Part shown: positions 1-10,252 of the stretch, in pieces
Layout of the letters: each line of letters opens with the position of its first letter
Position numbering within the stretch: position 1 is the stretch's first letter
Origin: Candidatus Aenigmatarchaeota archaeon
GTDB lineage: Archaea > Aenigmatarchaeota > Aenigmatarchaeia > CG10238-14 > SCSR01
Direction of reading: 5' to 3'
Length of the DNA stretch: 62,993 nucleotides
Assembly (NCBI GenBank): GCA_016187415.1
Contig: JACPJT010000005.1
Span: 1-62,993, forward strand
Position numbers and translations under genes: made by a program
Notes under the pieces: generated by a model
The model's database searches: none
Seen by the model: the letters and a program-made list of their open reading frames with translations, nothing else
Told to the model about the DNA's origin: nothing

Positions 1-2
1 AT

Positions 3-1373
3 GAAAAAGGTTTGTGTACATTGTGCAATAATGAAACAGATTTACGTTGGAAGGATGTCAAATCTGGTAACAAAATATGCAACTCTTGCTATTATAGGAA
101 CTTAGGAAAGAGGATGATAAGAAAGAAGTTTGTACCCACTTCGAAAAGAAAAGTTGAAAATGATTTTAATGTAAAAAATGTTGGAAATATTTCGAAGACA
201 CATTATCATTTGGCTCTAAAAGATGCAGCCGAATTAATCGACGCTCTAGAGAAGCAAAGAAAAGAGAAAATTAGAGGGTTAATGTTCGATAAAAAAAGGC
301 AAAAAAGATTTAGAGAAATTCTTGAAGATAGCTCTAAAAGAATTGAGTTACCTCTCCAAAAAGGGCAAAGAATAATTAGATACGTGCATATCGAAGACAA
401 AGATAAAAATCTAAGAGGCTGGAGTCTGAGAAAATTACAGTCGTATGTTAAAGACCTCGATAAGAAAATAGAACATAGAAGAAAATCTCTTATTAACAAT
501 AATCCAGAATCTAAGGGCAGTAAGATATCTTTGCATAACAATACTGTTTTTGATATTAAAGAGAATAAAGTTAGGATTACTTTATGGGAGAAAAAGTGGT
601 ATAAGTTCAGTGGCTCAAATATCGTGAACAAAAAAGGCAAAGAATACGTTATAGGCAAACTTTCTAAGATACGACCCAACAAGTATGGTATGCTAATTAG
701 AAAATTACTAAAGGACGGTGATTATGACTATTTTCTTCAATACCCCATTGAGGAGTCTATTCAGAAAAGAAATCTCGATAACATAATGGGTATAGATATA
801 GGCTTGAATAAACTAGCAGCTTTCTCTATATTTCAAATTAATGATGGATCAAAGCCTCTGATAGTCAAAATATACCGCAACCAGATTATGTCTATGAAAA
901 TTTCCCACAGGAAACATTTGTATTTTCTAAAAGGAGTTCATAATAAAAACAGAAAAATAAGAAACATACGTCCGATTTCTAGACGCATAGATCTTTATTT
1001 ACATGAGATTAGTAGCGAAATTGTAAAGAAAGCAGATGAATTTAATGCAAAAATATCCATGGAACTTCTCAAGGATATGAAGATAAAATCAAAAGCTAGT
1101 CAGAGTGCAAAACAAAAATACAGCCTGTCCTTATTCGAATACAAAAAGTTAAGAAGTTTAATTGAATATAAAGCTCACCGTTTGGGTATACCTACTATTT
1201 TAGTCGATCCTGAAGGAACAAGCTATACATGTAGTAAATGCGGATCTACAAACACAACGAGGCCAAAACAGGCGATATTCAGATGTAATGATTGCAGCGT
1301 GGAGTTGAATGCAGACTATAATGCTTCGGTTAACATAGCAAGGAAAGCTTTAAGTAATCGAATCGGCAATTAA
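3..1373 (+). CDS. cas12f: Cas12f (Cas14-like) type V-F CRISPR nuclease, 5' end outside window
   Basis: RNA-guided RuvC nuclease of the miniature Cas12f/TnpB superfamily. The frame is open to the left edge, so the N-terminus is missing. Counting from the TTG at position 12, the RuvC acids are D262 (in GIDIGLNK), E351 (in ISMELLKDMK) and D435 (in ELNADYNAS). A target-nucleic-acid-binding zinc ribbon, C407-x2-C410 and C425-x2-C428, sits between the last two. A second Cys pair set lies at the N-terminus (C2/C5, C23/C26). In Un1Cas12f1, as I recall it, the same acids lie 64-75 residues further in, which predicts a full length near 515-520 residues. The gene is AT-rich. The tracrRNA-like region and repeat array that follow separate it from a plain IS605 TnpB. 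The ATG at position 1 is in another frame and stops early. Confidence 0.88.
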   Translation, partial: EKGLCTLCNNETDLRWKDVKSGNKICNSCYYRNLGKRMIRKKFVPTSKRKVENDFNVKNVGNISKTHYHLALKDAAELIDALEKQRKEKIRGLMFDKKRQKRFREILEDSSKRIELPLQKGQRIIRYVHIEDKDKNLRGWSLRKLQSYVKDLDKKIEHRRKSLINNNPESKGSKISLHNNTVFDIKENKVRITLWEKKWYKFSGSNIVNKKGKEYVIGKLSKIRPNKYGMLIRKLLKDGDYDYFLQYPIEESIQKRNLDNIMGIDIGLNKLAAFSIFQINDGSKPLIVKIYRNQIMSMKISHRKHLYFLKGVHNKNRKIRNIRPISRRIDLYLHEISSEIVKKADEFNAKISMELLKDMKIKSKASQSAKQKYSLSLFEYKKLRSLIEYKAHRLGIPTILVDPEGTSYTCSKCGSTNTTRPKQAIFRCNDCSVELNADYNASVNIARKALSNRIGN

Positions 1374-1375
1374 AA

Positions 1376-1596
1376 ATTGTTATGTGAGCACAGTTAGTGT
1401 TAATTGTGCTTTAAAGCAAACTATATGCCAGACGGCTATACGCTTTCTGGTGAACTCCCTAGAGGAGCAAATGGCGGCGTTGCACCGCAAAGGAATAAAA
1501 TCCAAAAAGTCTTACAAGACTTATACTAGTTTCGGCTAGTATATTTCGACGGACTAATTTAAGGTTCGGTTCAACGGTTACTGGAATTTCTTTTTA
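1376..1596 (+). ncRNA. Putative tracrRNA of the Cas12f system
   Basis: Non-coding stretch between the nuclease and the array with a chain of hairpins: AGCACA 1387-1392 with TGTGCT 1405-1410; CCAGA 1428-1432 with TCTGG 1446-1450; CTCC 1455-1458 with GGAG 1464-1467; GCGG 1474-1477 with CCGC 1485-1488; and the 8-bp TATACTAG 1522-1529 with CTAGTATA 1536-1543 (loop TTTCGG). The loop GTTGCA at 1479-1484 is complementary to the repeat's 3' TGCAAC. CGGTTACTGGA at 1575-1585 pairs over 11 bp (one G-U) with TCCAGTAGCCG in the repeat. A T-rich run at 1587-1595 may end the RNA. Two separated anti-repeats, one in a hairpin loop and one near the 3' end, match the Cas12f1 guide design. The ends are estimates. 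Confidence 0.78.
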
Positions 1597-1677
1597 AACC
1601 ATGTTACAAAAAGTAAATATCCTAAACCTAACAGTAAAATTACTAGAAACTGGGGCAATAGCGTAATTACAACGGCT

Positions 1678-1789
1678 CATCCAGTAGCCGAATCAACGAA
1701 TCGAGAAATGCAACTTGTTCCTGTAGAACTTGCTCTTGACTGACGGGATAATCATCCAGTAGCCGAATCAACGAATCGAGAAATGCAAC
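1678..1789 (+). CRISPR. Minimal CRISPR array: two repeats, one spacer
   Basis: Two direct repeats are identical over 39 bases (1677-1715 and 1752-1790). Taking a 37-nt unit ending in GCAAC gives repeats at 1678-1714 and 1753-1789 and a 38-nt spacer at 1715-1752. The repeat contains CCGAAT, ACGAAT and the 3' end AATGCAAC, which resembles the Un1Cas12f1 repeat as I remember it. No further copy is visible downstream before the next gene at 1823. The repeat's 5' part pairs with the anti-repeat at 1575-1585 and its 3' end with the loop at 1479-1484. The 80 bases before the first repeat are AT-rich and may hold its promoter. Confidence 0.9.
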
Positions 1790-1822
1790 TATGATAAAAG
1801 CATGTTAGAAAGATAAGTGTAT

Positions 1823-2581
1823 ATGCCAATCAAGTTTTTGACAGATTATCCAGCAGCATTTATTTCCGACCAAAAAATATTGGTGATTTCTGATATACAC
1901 ATCGGCATCGAATACGATTTGTCGCAGTCCGGCATCAGAATTCATAAACAAATCGAGAAGTTCAAAGCGACTTTGGACAAACTGATTGAAATGACTAAAG
2001 CAGAAACACTGGTAATCCTGGGCGATGTAAAACATAAAGTGCCGGGTGCATCTATACAGGAGTTGCGGGATATACCCAAATTCCTAGAACATCTGTCGAC
2101 CAAGGTTCAAGTTTTGATAACAAAAGGGAATCACGATGATTTTCTGGAGACACTGATACCGCAAGATGTAAAGCTGTACGATAGCAAAGGTTTCAGAATA
2201 GGCAGGCACGGATTCTTCCATGGTCATGCCTGGCCTGATAAGGATTTGATGCGATGCGATTACCTTTTCATGGGTCACATACAGCCGGCGGTGCAGTTCG
2301 AAGACAAGCTGGGATACAGATCACGCCAGCAGGTTTGGCTTAAGGGTGAATTGAATCAGGATGCGATAAAGAAAAAATACAAGACCAGTTCAACAGGCAA
2401 GCTTCACATGATAGTCGTCCCCGCATTCAATACAATGTCAGGGAGTTTGAACATAGCATCAGACGACGATCTGTCAGGACCATTATTGTCAAAAGCTCTG
2501 AAACTGGACGGGATGAGGACTTATCTTTTAGATGGCACATATCTCGGTTCCCTGAAAAATATCAAGAACAGAATTCAATAA
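1823..2581 (+). CDS. Archaeal ICC-like metallophosphoesterase
   Basis: Predicted calcineurin-type phosphoesterase of the archaeal ICC-like group (COG1407 type). The two-metal motifs appear in order: SDIHIG, LGDVKH, KGNHDD, a GHAW histidine and GHIQP, spread from about residue 25 to 155 of 252. The substrate is unknown; family members are often linked to nucleic acid metabolism and sit near helicases in other archaea, which is not the case here. The ATG at 1823 is preferred; a GTG two codons upstream (1817) is the alternative. The gene starts 33 bases after the CRISPR array and marks the return to housekeeping-type sequence. Confidence 0.85.
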   Translation: MPIKFLTDYPAAFISDQKILVISDIHIGIEYDLSQSGIRIHKQIEKFKATLDKLIEMTKAETLVILGDVKHKVPGASIQELRDIPKFLEHLSTKVQVLITKGNHDDFLETLIPQDVKLYDSKGFRIGRHGFFHGHAWPDKDLMRCDYLFMGHIQPAVQFEDKLGYRSRQQVWLKGELNQDAIKKKYKTSSTGKLHMIVVPAFNTMSGSLNIASDDDLSGPLLSKALKLDGMRTYLLDGTYLGSLKNIKNRIQ

Positions 2582-2613
2582 AGCTTATATATAGCCCAGT
2601 AGAATTTAATCCT

Positions 2614-3519
2614 ATGAGAAAGATTTTCATAATAGGATTGCTGAGTTTCCTGCTCATAATATCGCCTGCATTCGCGCTGAATATTACGGTTTCTACCGAC
2701 AAGACCAAAGTTTTCATGGGCGACACGGTAACTCTAACAGGAAAGATAGCATTCGATAATGGCACGACTACAAGTTTCCAATATCGTGCGGCCTTTGTCG
2801 CGCCAAAAGGAATAATCGTTTGTGACTCCAATAAGACTACAACACCATCTGATGGTACTTTTACTCTGCAGTGCAAACTGCCAACGGCAACCAATGCAAG
2901 CAGTCTAGGCATTCCGGCATCTGACAGCCGTTCAGTCATACCGTATGTGGCAGGCGTAGCTGTCAAAAATCCTGATACGAATCAGACAATCAAGAAGCAT
3001 GCAAAGGAAGTACTGGCTGTGAATCCAGACAAGTTCGGTAAAGAATTGGACAAGATAGCCAAAGATGTAGACGAGTTTGCAAATAACTCCAAAAGATTTG
3101 CACCAGAGTGCGATTCTATAGCAGAAAAAGCGGCCAAATTTAACCTTACCAATATCACTACGCAATGCTTGGAAATTCAGCAAAAATTAAATGATATGCT
3201 GTCAAACGCTACAAATATTTCTTCTCGGGCGATGCAACTGAAAGGTGGTTTGAATGCAACCAGTCTGCAAGATTTTAGAGAATTGCTCAAGTCTATGAAA
3301 GACAGTCAAAAGGATTTGAGAGACGAGTTGAAGAACGTTAAAGAAAACATACAATCCGTAAGATGGGATACTCTGAAAGAAATCAAGAAATCGACGCAAG
3401 AGATAAGGCAAGACATCCAGAAAGAGCGAGAAGAAATAAACAAAACCAGGCACGCAATTAACCAGCAGGAAACAAAATTAGGAACATTGAGAAATATATC
3501 AAAGGGGATTAGCAAATGA
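2614..3519 (+). CDS. Exported protein with Ig-like head and coiled-coil tail
   Basis: Not assigned to a named family. It has a signal peptide (MRK, then a hydrophobic stretch ending SPAFA), a beta-rich region about residues 22-125 that reads as an Ig/CARDB-like module (VSTDKTKVFMGDTVTLTGKI), and a long charged helical region from about 210 to 300 with heptad character. Several N-x-S/T sequons suggest surface N-glycosylation. A TATA-like TTATATATA lies at 2584-2592, about 25 bases before the ATG. The stop overlaps the next start by four bases, so it is co-translated with the small lipoprotein that follows. A role in the cell envelope is inference. Confidence 0.7.
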   Translation: MRKIFIIGLLSFLLIISPAFALNITVSTDKTKVFMGDTVTLTGKIAFDNGTTTSFQYRAAFVAPKGIIVCDSNKTTTPSDGTFTLQCKLPTATNASSLGIPASDSRSVIPYVAGVAVKNPDTNQTIKKHAKEVLAVNPDKFGKELDKIAKDVDEFANNSKRFAPECDSIAEKAAKFNLTNITTQCLEIQQKLNDMLSNATNISSRAMQLKGGLNATSLQDFRELLKSMKDSQKDLRDELKNVKENIQSVRWDTLKEIKKSTQEIRQDIQKEREEINKTRHAINQQETKLGTLRNISKGISK

Positions 3520-6220: not shown

Positions 6221-8593
6221 TTATCCCTCAGGCGGTTTTGTTTCCGGTTCCTTCCTATTTTTAAATTTGCCAAGGAAGTTCTTGAGCTTCCCGATGATAT
6301 TATTTTCTTCTTTTGGAGTATTATAAACATACTCTCCGGTCTTCGGCTTATAGCCTTCTTTCACCGGCCAGAAAAGATACGCCAGTGAGCCAACAACCAA
6401 AAGTACTATCGCACCGATGATGATCAACCATACTTTTGTAGGTATGCCGCCGCTTTGACTGGGCGTTTGGATGGCTTTCAGCTGTCCGTCTATCTTATCG
6501 ATTAACGCCTTCATAGGCGAGATGGTCAGCTGTGCTTGGAAGTAGTTATTGGATGTTATATATCCATCAATTTGGCTTAGGGTAGCTTTCAGTTCAGCCA
6601 GGTTTTGTTCTATCGCCGCTGTGTTGTTGCCTTTGGATGTAGTCCCATTAAACCTGTCTTCCAATTTACTTTCCTCAAGCTTGTACAAAGCCAGCGTGTC
6701 GTTGATTTTCAATTTTGTCGCATTTGAAGGAAGCACACGTAGCGTAAAATCCTGGGTTATGGTGCCGTTTATGCTGGTCGCCCCGAATTTGGACGGATAA
6801 TTATTGACGTCGGCGTTTCCGATGTTGAATGTTATGAAATATGTGCCGTTGGTGCCGACGAGTATGTTGGTAAAGGCGGGATTCACAGAATACCAGCTGG
6901 AATCAATGCCCGAGATGTTTAATGTCGTGTTCTGCCCCACGTTGCCGGTATTCTTAATGTCTATCTCATAAGATGCAGATGAATTTTGCACGACCTGCAC
7001 CAGCGACGACCATTGCACAAAACTTAGCGTTGCAGTGGTTTTCGGCTTGATTATCAGCGTGTTTGTAACGCTGTATGTTGTGTAATTTGTGTTTGTGGTG
7101 GTGTTGCACAGGTACAGATATGTGCTATCGGTTGGGAATGTCTGGATATCAGGCGTATTCACAGACGTGCCGTTTCTATACAGATTCGGTGTCACAGCCG
7201 ACGTATCAAGTGTGCATGTAACATTTGTCTGTATTGAGGTATCCAAAACCCATTGCGGCGTTGCATTCAGGCTTATCACGGGTGACGCCCTGTTGATCGT
7301 AAAGGAATTCAGCGGAGTCATGTTGAATGAATAGTTCAGATAAGACCCGAAAATCTTCCAATAATACGTGCCGGCCGGGAAAACAGCGCTATAGTTGTAA
7401 GCCGAGAGGGAGATGTTTGACATGCTGTAATTAACGGCGGTTCCCGACCAGTCGCCCTGCACCGTGACGTTTGTCAAACTCGCCGTCGAATTGAATGTTA
7501 TTGTAATGTTTGCCAGTGTGACATTTGAGAATGTTGACGGGATGTTTGCCGTTGCAGCCGTGTAGCTTGGCACAGTCCCGACAAAATACACCACAGAGCC
7601 GGCGGTATAATTGGTATTGGTTGCTGTTGTGACAGTGTAGTTGTGCAGCCCGACGGATGTTATAACATCATCCGGTTTAATGTACGGAACAGATACGCCC
7701 GAGACGATCGATGTGCCGTCTCTCGATATTGTGACAGGGCAATTTGAACAAGTCGCGTTTACAGTTATGTTTACTGCGGTATTGTTAATCGACGATGTGT
7801 TTCCGTTTAATGTGCCGTTGATGTAGACATAAATCGTGTTATTGGCCTGCTGGACAGTGTACACAAACTGCGATGTCGCATTGACTGTGCTGTTTGTATC
7901 AGTTGCATAAGTTCTCCATACATACGTACCGGCGGCAAGATCGGTCAGATTCCAATAGTAGACGCTACCGGAATTGTTCATCGTTTCATTGTGGGGCGTA
8001 CTGCTGCCAGTAAGGTTGTGCTCTATCAGTACTGTAGAAACAGCCACATTGTCCGTCCATGTAACATTGAACCAGTATGACCGCCTTGGAGTGTAGGTGC
8101 TGTTGGTTGCAGGCGATGTGGTATTGCTTGAATATTGGGGTGCGGTGGTGTCGATAAGCGTTATTGTCACATTGCTCGAAGCAATTGCATTGTTCGCATC
8201 TGCGACTGTTAAATTAACTCCGCTGCTTCCGGTGGAATTCGGGGTATTGACATACAGCCAGAAATATTGCGTCGCGCCATTTCCTATGATGCCTATCGAT
8301 GTGCTGTTTACCCATGATGGTGTTGAAAAGGACGATATGTACGGACTGGATGTGCTTGTGCCGGAGGTGCCGGTAAACACAACCCCTGGCGGCAGAGTGA
8401 TGTTTACTTGGGTTGCATTGACAGCGCCAGTGTCTTGTATGCTGAAATTAAGCAACTGGCTGGATTGCCCGGCTGTTAGGCTGGTCGGGCTGGAAGATGC
8501 GGTGAACGAGACTGCCACGGCAGCGGTGACAAGTATGTTAAACAAAAGAAGAGTTAGAATGAAAGCAGACGCCTCTTTAATCCTGTTCCCCAT
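6221..8593 (-). CDS. Large Ser/Thr/Asn-rich cell-surface protein with C-terminal anchor
   Basis: 790-residue exported protein. A signal peptide (about 1-28, ending VAVS) is followed by a beta-rich ectodomain with many N-x-S/T sequons and several Ig/CARDB-like units, for example DTGAVNATQVNITLPPG and IKNTGNVGQNTTLNISG. A helical segment (about 640-720) precedes one transmembrane helix (VWLIIIGAIVLLVVGSLAYL, about 738-757) and a basic cytoplasmic tail. This is the layout of archaeal S-layer or adhesin-like proteins. Leaderless expression is likely: a TATA-like TTTATATC lies at 8611-8618, 20-25 bases before the ATG. The exact role is not evident; adhesion or envelope structure is inference. Confidence 0.75.
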   Translation of the reverse strand: MGNRIKEASAFILTLLLFNILVTAAVAVSFTASSSPTSLTAGQSSQLLNFSIQDTGAVNATQVNITLPPGVVFTGTSGTSTSSPYISSFSTPSWVNSTSIGIIGNGATQYFWLYVNTPNSTGSSGVNLTVADANNAIASSNVTITLIDTTAPQYSSNTTSPATNSTYTPRRSYWFNVTWTDNVAVSTVLIEHNLTGSSTPHNETMNNSGSVYYWNLTDLAAGTYVWRTYATDTNSTVNATSQFVYTVQQANNTIYVYINGTLNGNTSSINNTAVNITVNATCSNCPVTISRDGTSIVSGVSVPYIKPDDVITSVGLHNYTVTTATNTNYTAGSVVYFVGTVPSYTAATANIPSTFSNVTLANITITFNSTASLTNVTVQGDWSGTAVNYSMSNISLSAYNYSAVFPAGTYYWKIFGSYLNYSFNMTPLNSFTINRASPVISLNATPQWVLDTSIQTNVTCTLDTSAVTPNLYRNGTSVNTPDIQTFPTDSTYLYLCNTTTNTNYTTYSVTNTLIIKPKTTATLSFVQWSSLVQVVQNSSASYEIDIKNTGNVGQNTTLNISGIDSSWYSVNPAFTNILVGTNGTYFITFNIGNADVNNYPSKFGATSINGTITQDFTLRVLPSNATKLKINDTLALYKLEESKLEDRFNGTTSKGNNTAAIEQNLAELKATLSQIDGYITSNNYFQAQLTISPMKALIDKIDGQLKAIQTPSQSGGIPTKVWLIIIGAIVLLVVGSLAYLFWPVKEGYKPKTGEYVYNTPKEENNIIGKLKNFLGKFKNRKEPETKPPEG

Positions 8594-8923: not shown

Positions 8924-10252
8924 ATGAGAAGTATTTACTTTTTCATATTCTCCCTAATTTTAATCTTATTATTATTCCCCGAAATCTCGAAATCTAATTC
9001 TTTAACCGTTCCTTACCCTAGTAAAGTAGACCAAATAACTGAAAAGGATAGTGTCGAAGGAGATAGCTTATTTACTGATATGATTATTCAATTGGTCATT
9101 CCTAATGACACTTTCGCAAATCAAAATATAACAATTCTTCTTAATCCACGATATATGATTCAAAATTTATTCAATTTGAATAATATAATAATTTGTAAAA
9201 ATTACACAATAACAGGCTATAATTATAGATACAATTCTACCCATATAGGGTGCAATAGTGAAATTAATAACTTTACTAAGACTTTTAATGAAAATGACCA
9301 GTCACTAAGTATCTCAATTCCTACACATGAAATTGTTGGTTCTAATAATCTACTTATTAGAATTCAATATACTATTCCTAATTTTGTCTTAAAAGAAGGG
9401 CACGTTAAATTTCTTTCTGAATGGGTTGGTAATAAATTCCTATATTTCTTTTCACAATGTATCCCAGAAGTGAGTTGTAATATTAAAAATTGGGAAAGAA
9501 CTGTAGTTCTTCCAGAAAGTGCCATACTCGATAATTTTATTGGGAATGCTAAACTTACTGCATATGATGATAAGAATTTAATTTTTGAGATGCAGGGTGA
9601 CGGCAATAATTTTATTACCTATCATGATTCACGAGAAAAAGAATTAGTATTACCTTTATTTTTCACAAGTTTAGGTGTTTTGGGGGGTTTACTAGGAACA
9701 TTTTTATATGATTATATTAAATCCCAAATTAATAAAAGATTAGAGAGTAAAGATATCACTAATATGGTAGGAAATTCTATTTGGAAAATAGTTTTGCATA
9801 CTTTGTATGAAAATGCTACTAATGCGTCTTTCTATAGCAGTGGAATTGGCACTGGGTTTTGGAACAATGAACATCCTCTTGCAAAAGAATTGAAAATTAG
9901 TGGGCAACAATTAGGACAAAGCATGACATTTCTAAGCAATCAAAAATTAATTGATGGTTATTTGGGTAGCGAACAATCATCTATAGATCTTACATTAGAA
10001 GGGTTTAGAACTGCTTTGAAAAATGAAACTTCTGAGAGAGAAGATAAGCAATCTCAAAACGAGAATAAGCTTCATACTACTATAGCTATTTTCACCACTA
10101 TTGTGGGATTAACTTCCATATGGCAAGTTTTAAGAATTACTGAGATAATTTCTAGTCAGAGATTTATAGATTATGGATTCATATTTGTAATGATGATAAT
10201 TTTAGTTTATTGGACTGCGTTGAATTATAAAAATTTTAAAAAAGGATTGTAA
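8924..10252 (+). CDS. AT-rich membrane protein with extracytoplasmic domain and internal winged-helix-like region
   Basis: 442 residues. There is a signal or first membrane helix (about 4-20), then a beta-rich extracytoplasmic domain to about 235 with N-x-S/T sites and several Cys, and a transmembrane helix near 243-263 (LVLPLFFTSLGVLGGLLGTF). The cytoplasmic part around 290-370 reads like a winged helix (LAKELKISGQQLGQSMTFLS, then DGYLGS and LTLEGFRTAL). Two more helices follow near 385-405 and 418-436. I know no named family with this order; a one-component membrane sensor is one reading. Codon use is much more AT-rich than the flanking genes, suggesting recent acquisition. Confidence 0.65.
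   Translation: MRSIYFFIFSLILILLLFPEISKSNSLTVPYPSKVDQITEKDSVEGDSLFTDMIIQLVIPNDTFANQNITILLNPRYMIQNLFNLNNIIICKNYTITGYNYRYNSTHIGCNSEINNFTKTFNENDQSLSISIPTHEIVGSNNLLIRIQYTIPNFVLKEGHVKFLSEWVGNKFLYFFSQCIPEVSCNIKNWERTVVLPESAILDNFIGNAKLTAYDDKNLIFEMQGDGNNFITYHDSREKELVLPLFFTSLGVLGGLLGTFLYDYIKSQINKRLESKDITNMVGNSIWKIVLHTLYENATNASFYSSGIGTGFWNNEHPLAKELKISGQQLGQSMTFLSNQKLIDGYLGSEQSSIDLTLEGFRTALKNETSEREDKQSQNENKLHTTIAIFTTIVGLTSIWQVLRITEIISSQRFIDYGFIFVMMIILVYWTALNYKNFKKGL

What the first reader, a model, noticed from the sequence alone, without database searches (positions are those of the whole stretch)
3..1790. Compact type V-F (Cas12f) CRISPR locus in an archaeon
The sequence shows a RuvC nuclease with D/E/D acids and a C-terminal zinc ribbon, then a hairpin-rich non-coding stretch, then two identical 37-39 base repeats around one 38-base spacer. 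The repeat shares CCGAAT, ACGAAT and AATGCAAC with the Un1Cas12f1 (Cas14a1) repeat as I remember it. The protein is diverged, with a double Cys-pair N-terminus, so this may be a new Cas12f ortholog with its own guide RNA.
Basis: partly seen in the sequence, partly recalled or inferred. Interest (0 to 1): 0.93.

Follow-up and report, generated by a model that had tools for sequence, protein, structure and literature searches.

The report
Mosaic archaeal Cas12f2 (Cas14b) CRISPR locus
This is a complete miniature CRISPR system (type V-F2, Cas12f2/Cas14b) in a small uncultured archaeon, split over two contigs; its nuclease and guide-RNA scaffold sit on a repeat and anti-repeat closest to those that a relative from the same family uses with a different nuclease, Cas12f1.

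Summary
The frame at 3..1373 is a Cas12f2 (Cas14b) effector: NCBIfam NF049972 457.2 bits against a cut-off of 450, despite a missing N-terminus. It is followed by a folded non-coding stretch and two identical 37-nt repeats around one 38-nt spacer. The missing 56 residues, preceded by cas4, cas2 and cas1, lie at the left end of contig C3. Three sister species carry HerA next to the phosphoesterase with no cas genes between. This fixes the C3/C9 junction and shows a whole-locus insertion. It is therefore a complete type V-F2 locus, not an IS605 TnpB. The tracrRNA is supported: 1563-1585 pairs with the repeat, with three compensatory changes against genome G012. Its anti-repeat, leader and repeat match G012 (same family), which carries a Cas12f1. 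DNA similarity stops at the cas4 stop codon and resumes at the anti-repeat, so effector plus tracrRNA scaffold appear to have been exchanged as one cassette, with a breakpoint inside the tracrRNA gene. Its cas1 groups with a third locus (G046), and the cas1 tree rejects grouping the two Cas12f2 loci (p-AU 0.00017). New member of a known kind.

The parts
3..1373 (+). cas12f2 (Cas14b) effector gene, 5' end cut by the contig start; the first 56 codons are on contig C3 (L007 169..1, minus strand)
15..91 (+). N-terminal zinc-finger Cys pairs C5/C8 and C26/C29
   Evidence: sequence; C26 and C29 conserved in the G135 Cas12f2
795..797 (+). RuvC-I catalytic Asp (D265 of the fragment)
   Evidence: invariant in alignment A2
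1062..1064 (+). RuvC-II catalytic Glu (E354)
   Evidence: invariant in alignment A2
1230..1295 (+). target nucleic-acid-binding (TNB) zinc ribbon, C410/C413/C428/C431
   Evidence: Pfam PF07282 2.7e-19
1314..1316 (+). RuvC-III catalytic Asp (D438)
   Evidence: invariant in alignment A2
1374..1562 (+). predicted tracrRNA scaffold with several hairpins; no DNA similarity to the G012 Cas12f1 locus
   Evidence: fold z -3.23
1563..1585 (+). predicted tracrRNA anti-repeat: GGTTCG and CGGTTACTGGA pair with repeat CGAATC and TCCAGTAGCCG
   Evidence: duplex -27.1 kcal/mol, best of 3991 tiles of the first 20 kb; 3 compensatory changes against G012
1565..1626 (+). 62-nt block (anti-repeat plus leader) 85% identical to the Cas12f1 locus of G012
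   Evidence: extended match 1565-1716 at 73.5%
1591..1598 (+). TATA-box-like TTTTTAAA, aligned with TTTATAAA (G012) and TTTATAAG (G135); presumed promoter of the array
   Evidence: alignment; function inferred
1678..1714 (+). CRISPR repeat 1 (37 nt)
1715..1752 (+). spacer (38 nt), no protospacer found
1753..1789 (+). CRISPR repeat 2 (37 nt), end of array
1817..2581 (+). metallophosphoesterase, host gene at the right edge of the insertion (27 nt after the last repeat)
   Evidence: next to HerA without CRISPR genes in three sister species

Best explanation
A complete, probably functional type V-F2 CRISPR-Cas locus: cas1-cas2-cas4-cas12f2-tracrRNA-short array, inserted between the host genes herA and a metallophosphoesterase. 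Shown: gene order, family, intact active-site residues, repeats, and a covarying repeat:anti-repeat duplex. Inferred from the family: the array is transcribed, the tracrRNA pairs with the crRNA repeat, two Cas12f2 subunits bind the guide, recognise a T-rich 5' PAM and cut double-stranded DNA with the RuvC domain; Cas1-Cas2-Cas4 adds spacers. The locus is mosaic: the effector gene and the effector-binding part of the tracrRNA appear to have been exchanged as a cassette within a locus whose anti-repeat, leader and repeat stayed.
For: Cas12f2 profile 457.2 bits against cut-off 450 with 57 of 524 positions missing; PADLOC Cas14b. N-terminal 56 residues (profile 1-38 aligned) at the end of contig C3. 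Cas1, Cas2 and Cas4 over their cut-offs just upstream. In three sister species HerA and the phosphoesterase are neighbours, so C3 and C9 abut and the locus is an insertion. Anti-repeat; covariation; fold. Mosaic: G012 effector is Cas12f1 (549 and 382 bits against Cas12f1-type models, 58 for Cas14b); DNA similarity G000-G012 ends at the cas4 stop and resumes at 1565; repeat 29 of 37 identical; cas1 tree rejects G000+G135 (p-AU 0.00017) and G000+G012 (0.0004) in favour of G046; GC3 of cas4 and cas12f2 28-32% against 48-54% for the host genes mpe, IF2 and Rad50.
Against: No expression or activity data. Only one spacer and no protospacer found, so current activity is unproven. The duplex energy alone is not unique: an unrelated tile at 9816 reaches -26.4, and shuffled repeats reach the observed energy in 0 to 3 of 1000 trials. 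In G135 the same energy test is not significant. The cas4 tree is unresolved. The cassette exchange rests on four loci. HerA itself has GC3 39%, so low GC3 alone does not prove foreign origin. The AlphaFold model is poor outside the RuvC part (mean pLDDT 52.6).
Confidence: 0.93

Rival explanations
1. The protein is an IS605/IS607-type TnpB with its omega-RNA, and the repeats are transposon ends.
For: The RuvC half matches TnpB profiles (guided_TnpB 116.7 bits), as for all Cas12f.
Against: The Cas12f2 profile scores four times higher and over its full length; cas1-cas2-cas4 upstream; repeat only twice in the genome; no copy of the repeat motif beside TnpB genes in 27 related loci; the only Y1 transposase is on contig C4.
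Confidence: 0.02
2. A decaying relic: a one-spacer locus that no longer acquires spacers or interferes.
For: Only two repeats and one spacer; no protospacer found; the G135 relative also has one spacer and a broken second repeat.
Against: All cas genes read open with intact catalytic residues; both repeats identical; repeat:anti-repeat covariation; absent from three sister species, so recently gained rather than long decaying.
Confidence: 0.12
3. No cassette exchange: Cas12f1 and Cas12f2 simply diverged in place from one ancestral effector while the rest of the locus stayed alike.
For: cas1, cas2 and cas4 are 57-74% identical between G000 and G012 and effectors evolve fast.
Against: Each effector belongs to a different, separately profiled group, and the cas1 tree rejects grouping the two Cas12f2 loci; similarity stops and starts sharply at the cas4 stop codon and the anti-repeat.
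Confidence: 0.08

Closest known systems
Type V-F2 CRISPR-Cas, Cas12f2 (Cas14b; Mi1Cas12f2, Mi2Cas12f2, AuCas12f2; PMC7229846)
   Same: Effector passes the curated Cas12f2 model; cas1-cas2-cas4 adaptation module; tracrRNA region between effector and array; effector of about 515 residues
   Different: Host phylum Aenigmatarchaeota; 32% identical to the only other Cas12f2 found in that phylum here; repeat, leader and anti-repeat shared with a Cas12f1 locus. Identity to the characterised Cas12f2 proteins could not be measured here
Type V-F1, Cas12f1 (Cas14a1, Un1Cas12f1)
   Same: Repeat type, anti-repeat and leader resemble those of the Cas12f1 locus of G012 in the same archaeal family
   Different: Effector is not Cas12f1 (PADLOC PDLC01672 54.7 bits against 369.5 for PDLC01673); tracrRNA scaffold shows no DNA similarity
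IS605 TnpB with omega-RNA
   Same: RuvC and zinc-ribbon half
   Different: Real CRISPR array, cas1-cas2-cas4, repeat not dispersed, no transposase nearby

Membership tests
Type V-F2 (Cas12f2) | Effector over the curated Cas12f2 cut-off | tested here: met
   457.2 against 450 bits, positions 58-522 of 524
Type V-F2 (Cas12f2) | RuvC D/E/D and C-terminal zinc ribbon intact | tested here: met
Type V-F2 (Cas12f2) | CRISPR array of direct repeats beside the effector | tested here: met
   two identical repeats, 38-nt spacer; unique in the genome
Type V-F2 (Cas12f2) | Adaptation module cas1-cas2-cas4 (present in some V-F loci) | tested here: met
   junction by synteny
Type V-F2 (Cas12f2) | tracrRNA with anti-repeat between effector and array | tested here: met
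   predicted duplex and 3 compensatory changes against G012; expression not tested
Type V-F2 (Cas12f2) | Homodimer, T-rich PAM, dsDNA cleavage | not testable with these tools
   T-rich PAM and dsDNA cleavage reported for characterised Cas12f2 proteins (PMC7229846)
Type V-F1 (Cas12f1) | Effector closest to Cas12f1/Cas14a models | tested here: not met
   Cas12f2/Cas14b models far ahead
IS605 TnpB | Repeat dispersed in the genome as an insertion-sequence end, or adjacent TnpA | tested here: not met

The most novel reading that the evidence does not exclude
In V-F systems the effector gene and the effector-binding part of its tracrRNA move as one exchangeable cassette, while the anti-repeat stays with the leader and array; the recombination breakpoint lies inside the tracrRNA gene, so Cas12f1 and Cas12f2 can use the same repeats.
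Probability: 0.6. Interest if true: 0.62.

Novelty: new member of a known kind. Interest (0 to 1): 0.5.

Why it matters
Cas12f2 is a little-studied group of compact nucleases, and this gives a complete locus with an anti-repeat supported by covariation, enough to design a guide RNA. The mosaic structure suggests how a tracrRNA-dependent effector can be replaced without losing the resident array: keep the part of the tracrRNA that reads the repeat, and swap the part that the protein binds. That makes a direct prediction about interchangeable guide scaffolds.

Tried and rejected
Scans for relatives with the single protein found none in genome contigs or viral contigs; with a two-sequence alignment only the G135 locus was found. 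tblastn against plasmids and phages gave TnpB-like or weak partial hits only, none at 60% identity or more. No Rfam family in window 1-3000. Spacer: no match in IMG/VR or phages, and none in the own genome but itself and one 3-mismatch site. The repeat pattern has no match in IMG/VR. The idea that the solitary repeats of other genomes are TnpB ends was checked and not supported. The AlphaFold model is of low confidence; its first PDB matches are Cas12f structures, which adds little.

Full report
Observation. The window is the whole of contig C9 (62,993 bases) of a 735-kb, 10-contig archaeal genome. Its best-matching relative with a name is a Candidatus Aenigmatarchaeota MAG (L042), and that genome (G135) is ranked in the same class. 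The frame 3..1373 runs off the contig start. Two identical repeats flank one spacer. The repeat is found nowhere else in the genome at up to three mismatches.

What the protein is. NCBIfam places it as Cas12f2: 457.2 bits against a cut-off of 450, profile positions 58-522 of 524. The TnpB subfamily model scores 116.7. PADLOC gives Cas12f 369.5 and Cas14b 344.7 bits. The RuvC acids D265, E354 and D438 are invariant across Cas12f and TnpB-like relatives. An AlphaFold model from six sequences is good only in the RuvC part (mean pLDDT 52.6); its first PDB matches are Cas12f complexes.

The missing half of the locus. A search with the Cas12f2 family hits contig C3 at 8-124 on the minus strand with profile positions 1-38. 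Reading C3 leftwards gives cas1, cas2, cas4 and then METLYTENLPEK...AYRSL, 56 residues, up to the contig end. NCBIfam confirms cas1 (280.7 bits), cas2 (54.6) and cas4 (79.9), all over cut-off. Upstream of cas1 on C3 lies HerA. In three sister species of the same genus, HerA and the phosphoesterase that follows the array in the window are neighbours, with Rad50 and Mre11 beyond HerA where the fetched stretch reaches (two of the three) and IF2 beyond the phosphoesterase, and no cas genes between. This independently shows that C3 and C9 abut and that the complete locus is an insertion in this species. No Cas12f2 was found in the four other genomes of the genus searched.

Guide RNA. The stretch 1374-1590 folds better than 200 of 200 shuffles (z -3.23). 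The best partner of the repeat in the first 20 kb of the window is 1563-1585 (-27.1 kcal/mol). It pairs TCCAGTAGCCG with CGGTTACTGGA (11 pairs) and CGAATC with GGTTCG (6 pairs), with a 6x6 internal loop. Energy alone is suggestive, since an unrelated tile reaches -26.4. The stronger evidence is comparative: against genome G012, three pairs change on both sides and stay paired, two change on one side, and one breaks. Right after the anti-repeat lies a TATA-like element that aligns in three loci, presumably the promoter of the array.

Mosaic structure. G012, a genome of the same family but another genus, has cas1-cas2-cas4, an effector of the Cas12f1 (Cas14a) type (PADLOC 549 and 382 bits; Cas14b 58; NCBIfam Cas12f2 only 82.6) and an array of six repeats. 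Its repeat is identical to the window's at 29 of 37 positions. DNA similarity between the two loci runs through cas2 and cas4 to the cas4 stop codon (68.9% over 1367 bases, starting inside cas1, with a further weaker piece at the start of cas1), is absent over the effector gene and the first 190 bases of the tracrRNA region, and resumes at window 1565 through the first repeat (73.5% over 155 bases; 85% over the first 62). The other Cas12f2 locus (G135) shares no such stretch. So the RNA part that reads the repeat goes with the array, and the part next to the effector goes with the effector.

The adaptation genes have yet another history. cas1 of the window is closest to that of G046 (68% against 56-57%), whose effector is a third, Cas12f1-like type with a different repeat. 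The cas1 tree rejects joining the two Cas12f2 loci (p-AU 0.00017) and the two same-family loci (0.0004); cas4 alone is unresolved. GC at third positions is 31.5% in cas12f2 and 28.5% in cas4, 43.6% in cas1, and 48-54% in the nearby host genes mpe, IF2 and Rad50, though HerA has 39%. This fits recent acquisition without proving it.

Function. By family (PMC7229846), the effector should bind the tracrRNA:crRNA duplex, recognise a T-rich 5' PAM and cut double-stranded DNA. None of this is tested here. No protospacer was found. A relic with a dead array is possible but less likely, because all genes are open and both repeats are identical.

Verdict. The added point of interest is the apparent exchange of effector plus scaffold with a breakpoint inside the tracrRNA gene. 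It rests on four loci and should be tested on more.

Noticed in passing
L045-L054, L058-L063 (genomes G121, G141, G077, G061, G139, G067, G123, G131, G101, G155): Solitary, mostly intergenic copies of a Cas12f-type repeat (GTTGCAnAGCCCGAACAAACGAGTAATGGAATGCAAC), one or two per genome, in about ten Aenigmatarchaeota genomes in which no V-F-type cas1 or Cas12f was found and with no TnpB beside them; the reversed-pattern control gave none. In L050/L051 the upstream 428 bases are 99% identical and the sequence diverges right after the repeat. Could be relic arrays, solitary repeat units of the Racr kind (PMC10651486), or something else.
   Followed up: partly
L007:2102-4636 (G000:C3): HerA ATPase carries an intein-like insert of about 330 residues at FVEEAHQF|CLSSDTEIL...TGN|CP; the three sister species have HerA without it.
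   Followed up: partly
L009:7085-13973 (G000:C4): Solo Cas1 about 3.4 kb upstream of a family B DNA polymerase, with 30-nt direct repeats at 6823 and 15720 (93%): casposon-like element.
   Followed up: partly
L008:3086-4592 (G000:C4): A third cas1 overlapping a small RNase H-like/PolB-type exonuclease gene, without cas2, cas4 or an array found nearby.
   Followed up: no
L072:1600-5780 (G046:C19): A third V-F locus with a divergent Cas12f1-like effector (565 aa) and two repeats of another sequence (TTGCACATTGGATAGTTGAGTTAyyTGTTGTGCAAGT), followed by one sequence that looks like the usual Cas12f repeat.
   Followed up: partly
L041:1514-2349 and window 1790-1817: In G135 too the V-F locus sits next to a related phosphoesterase gene, and in G012 one lies near: possible insertion hotspot.
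   Followed up: no
L041:7067-9532 (G135:C8): Enzyme that looks like an archaeal S-adenosylmethionine synthetase with an intein-like insert (from reading the sequence).
   Followed up: no
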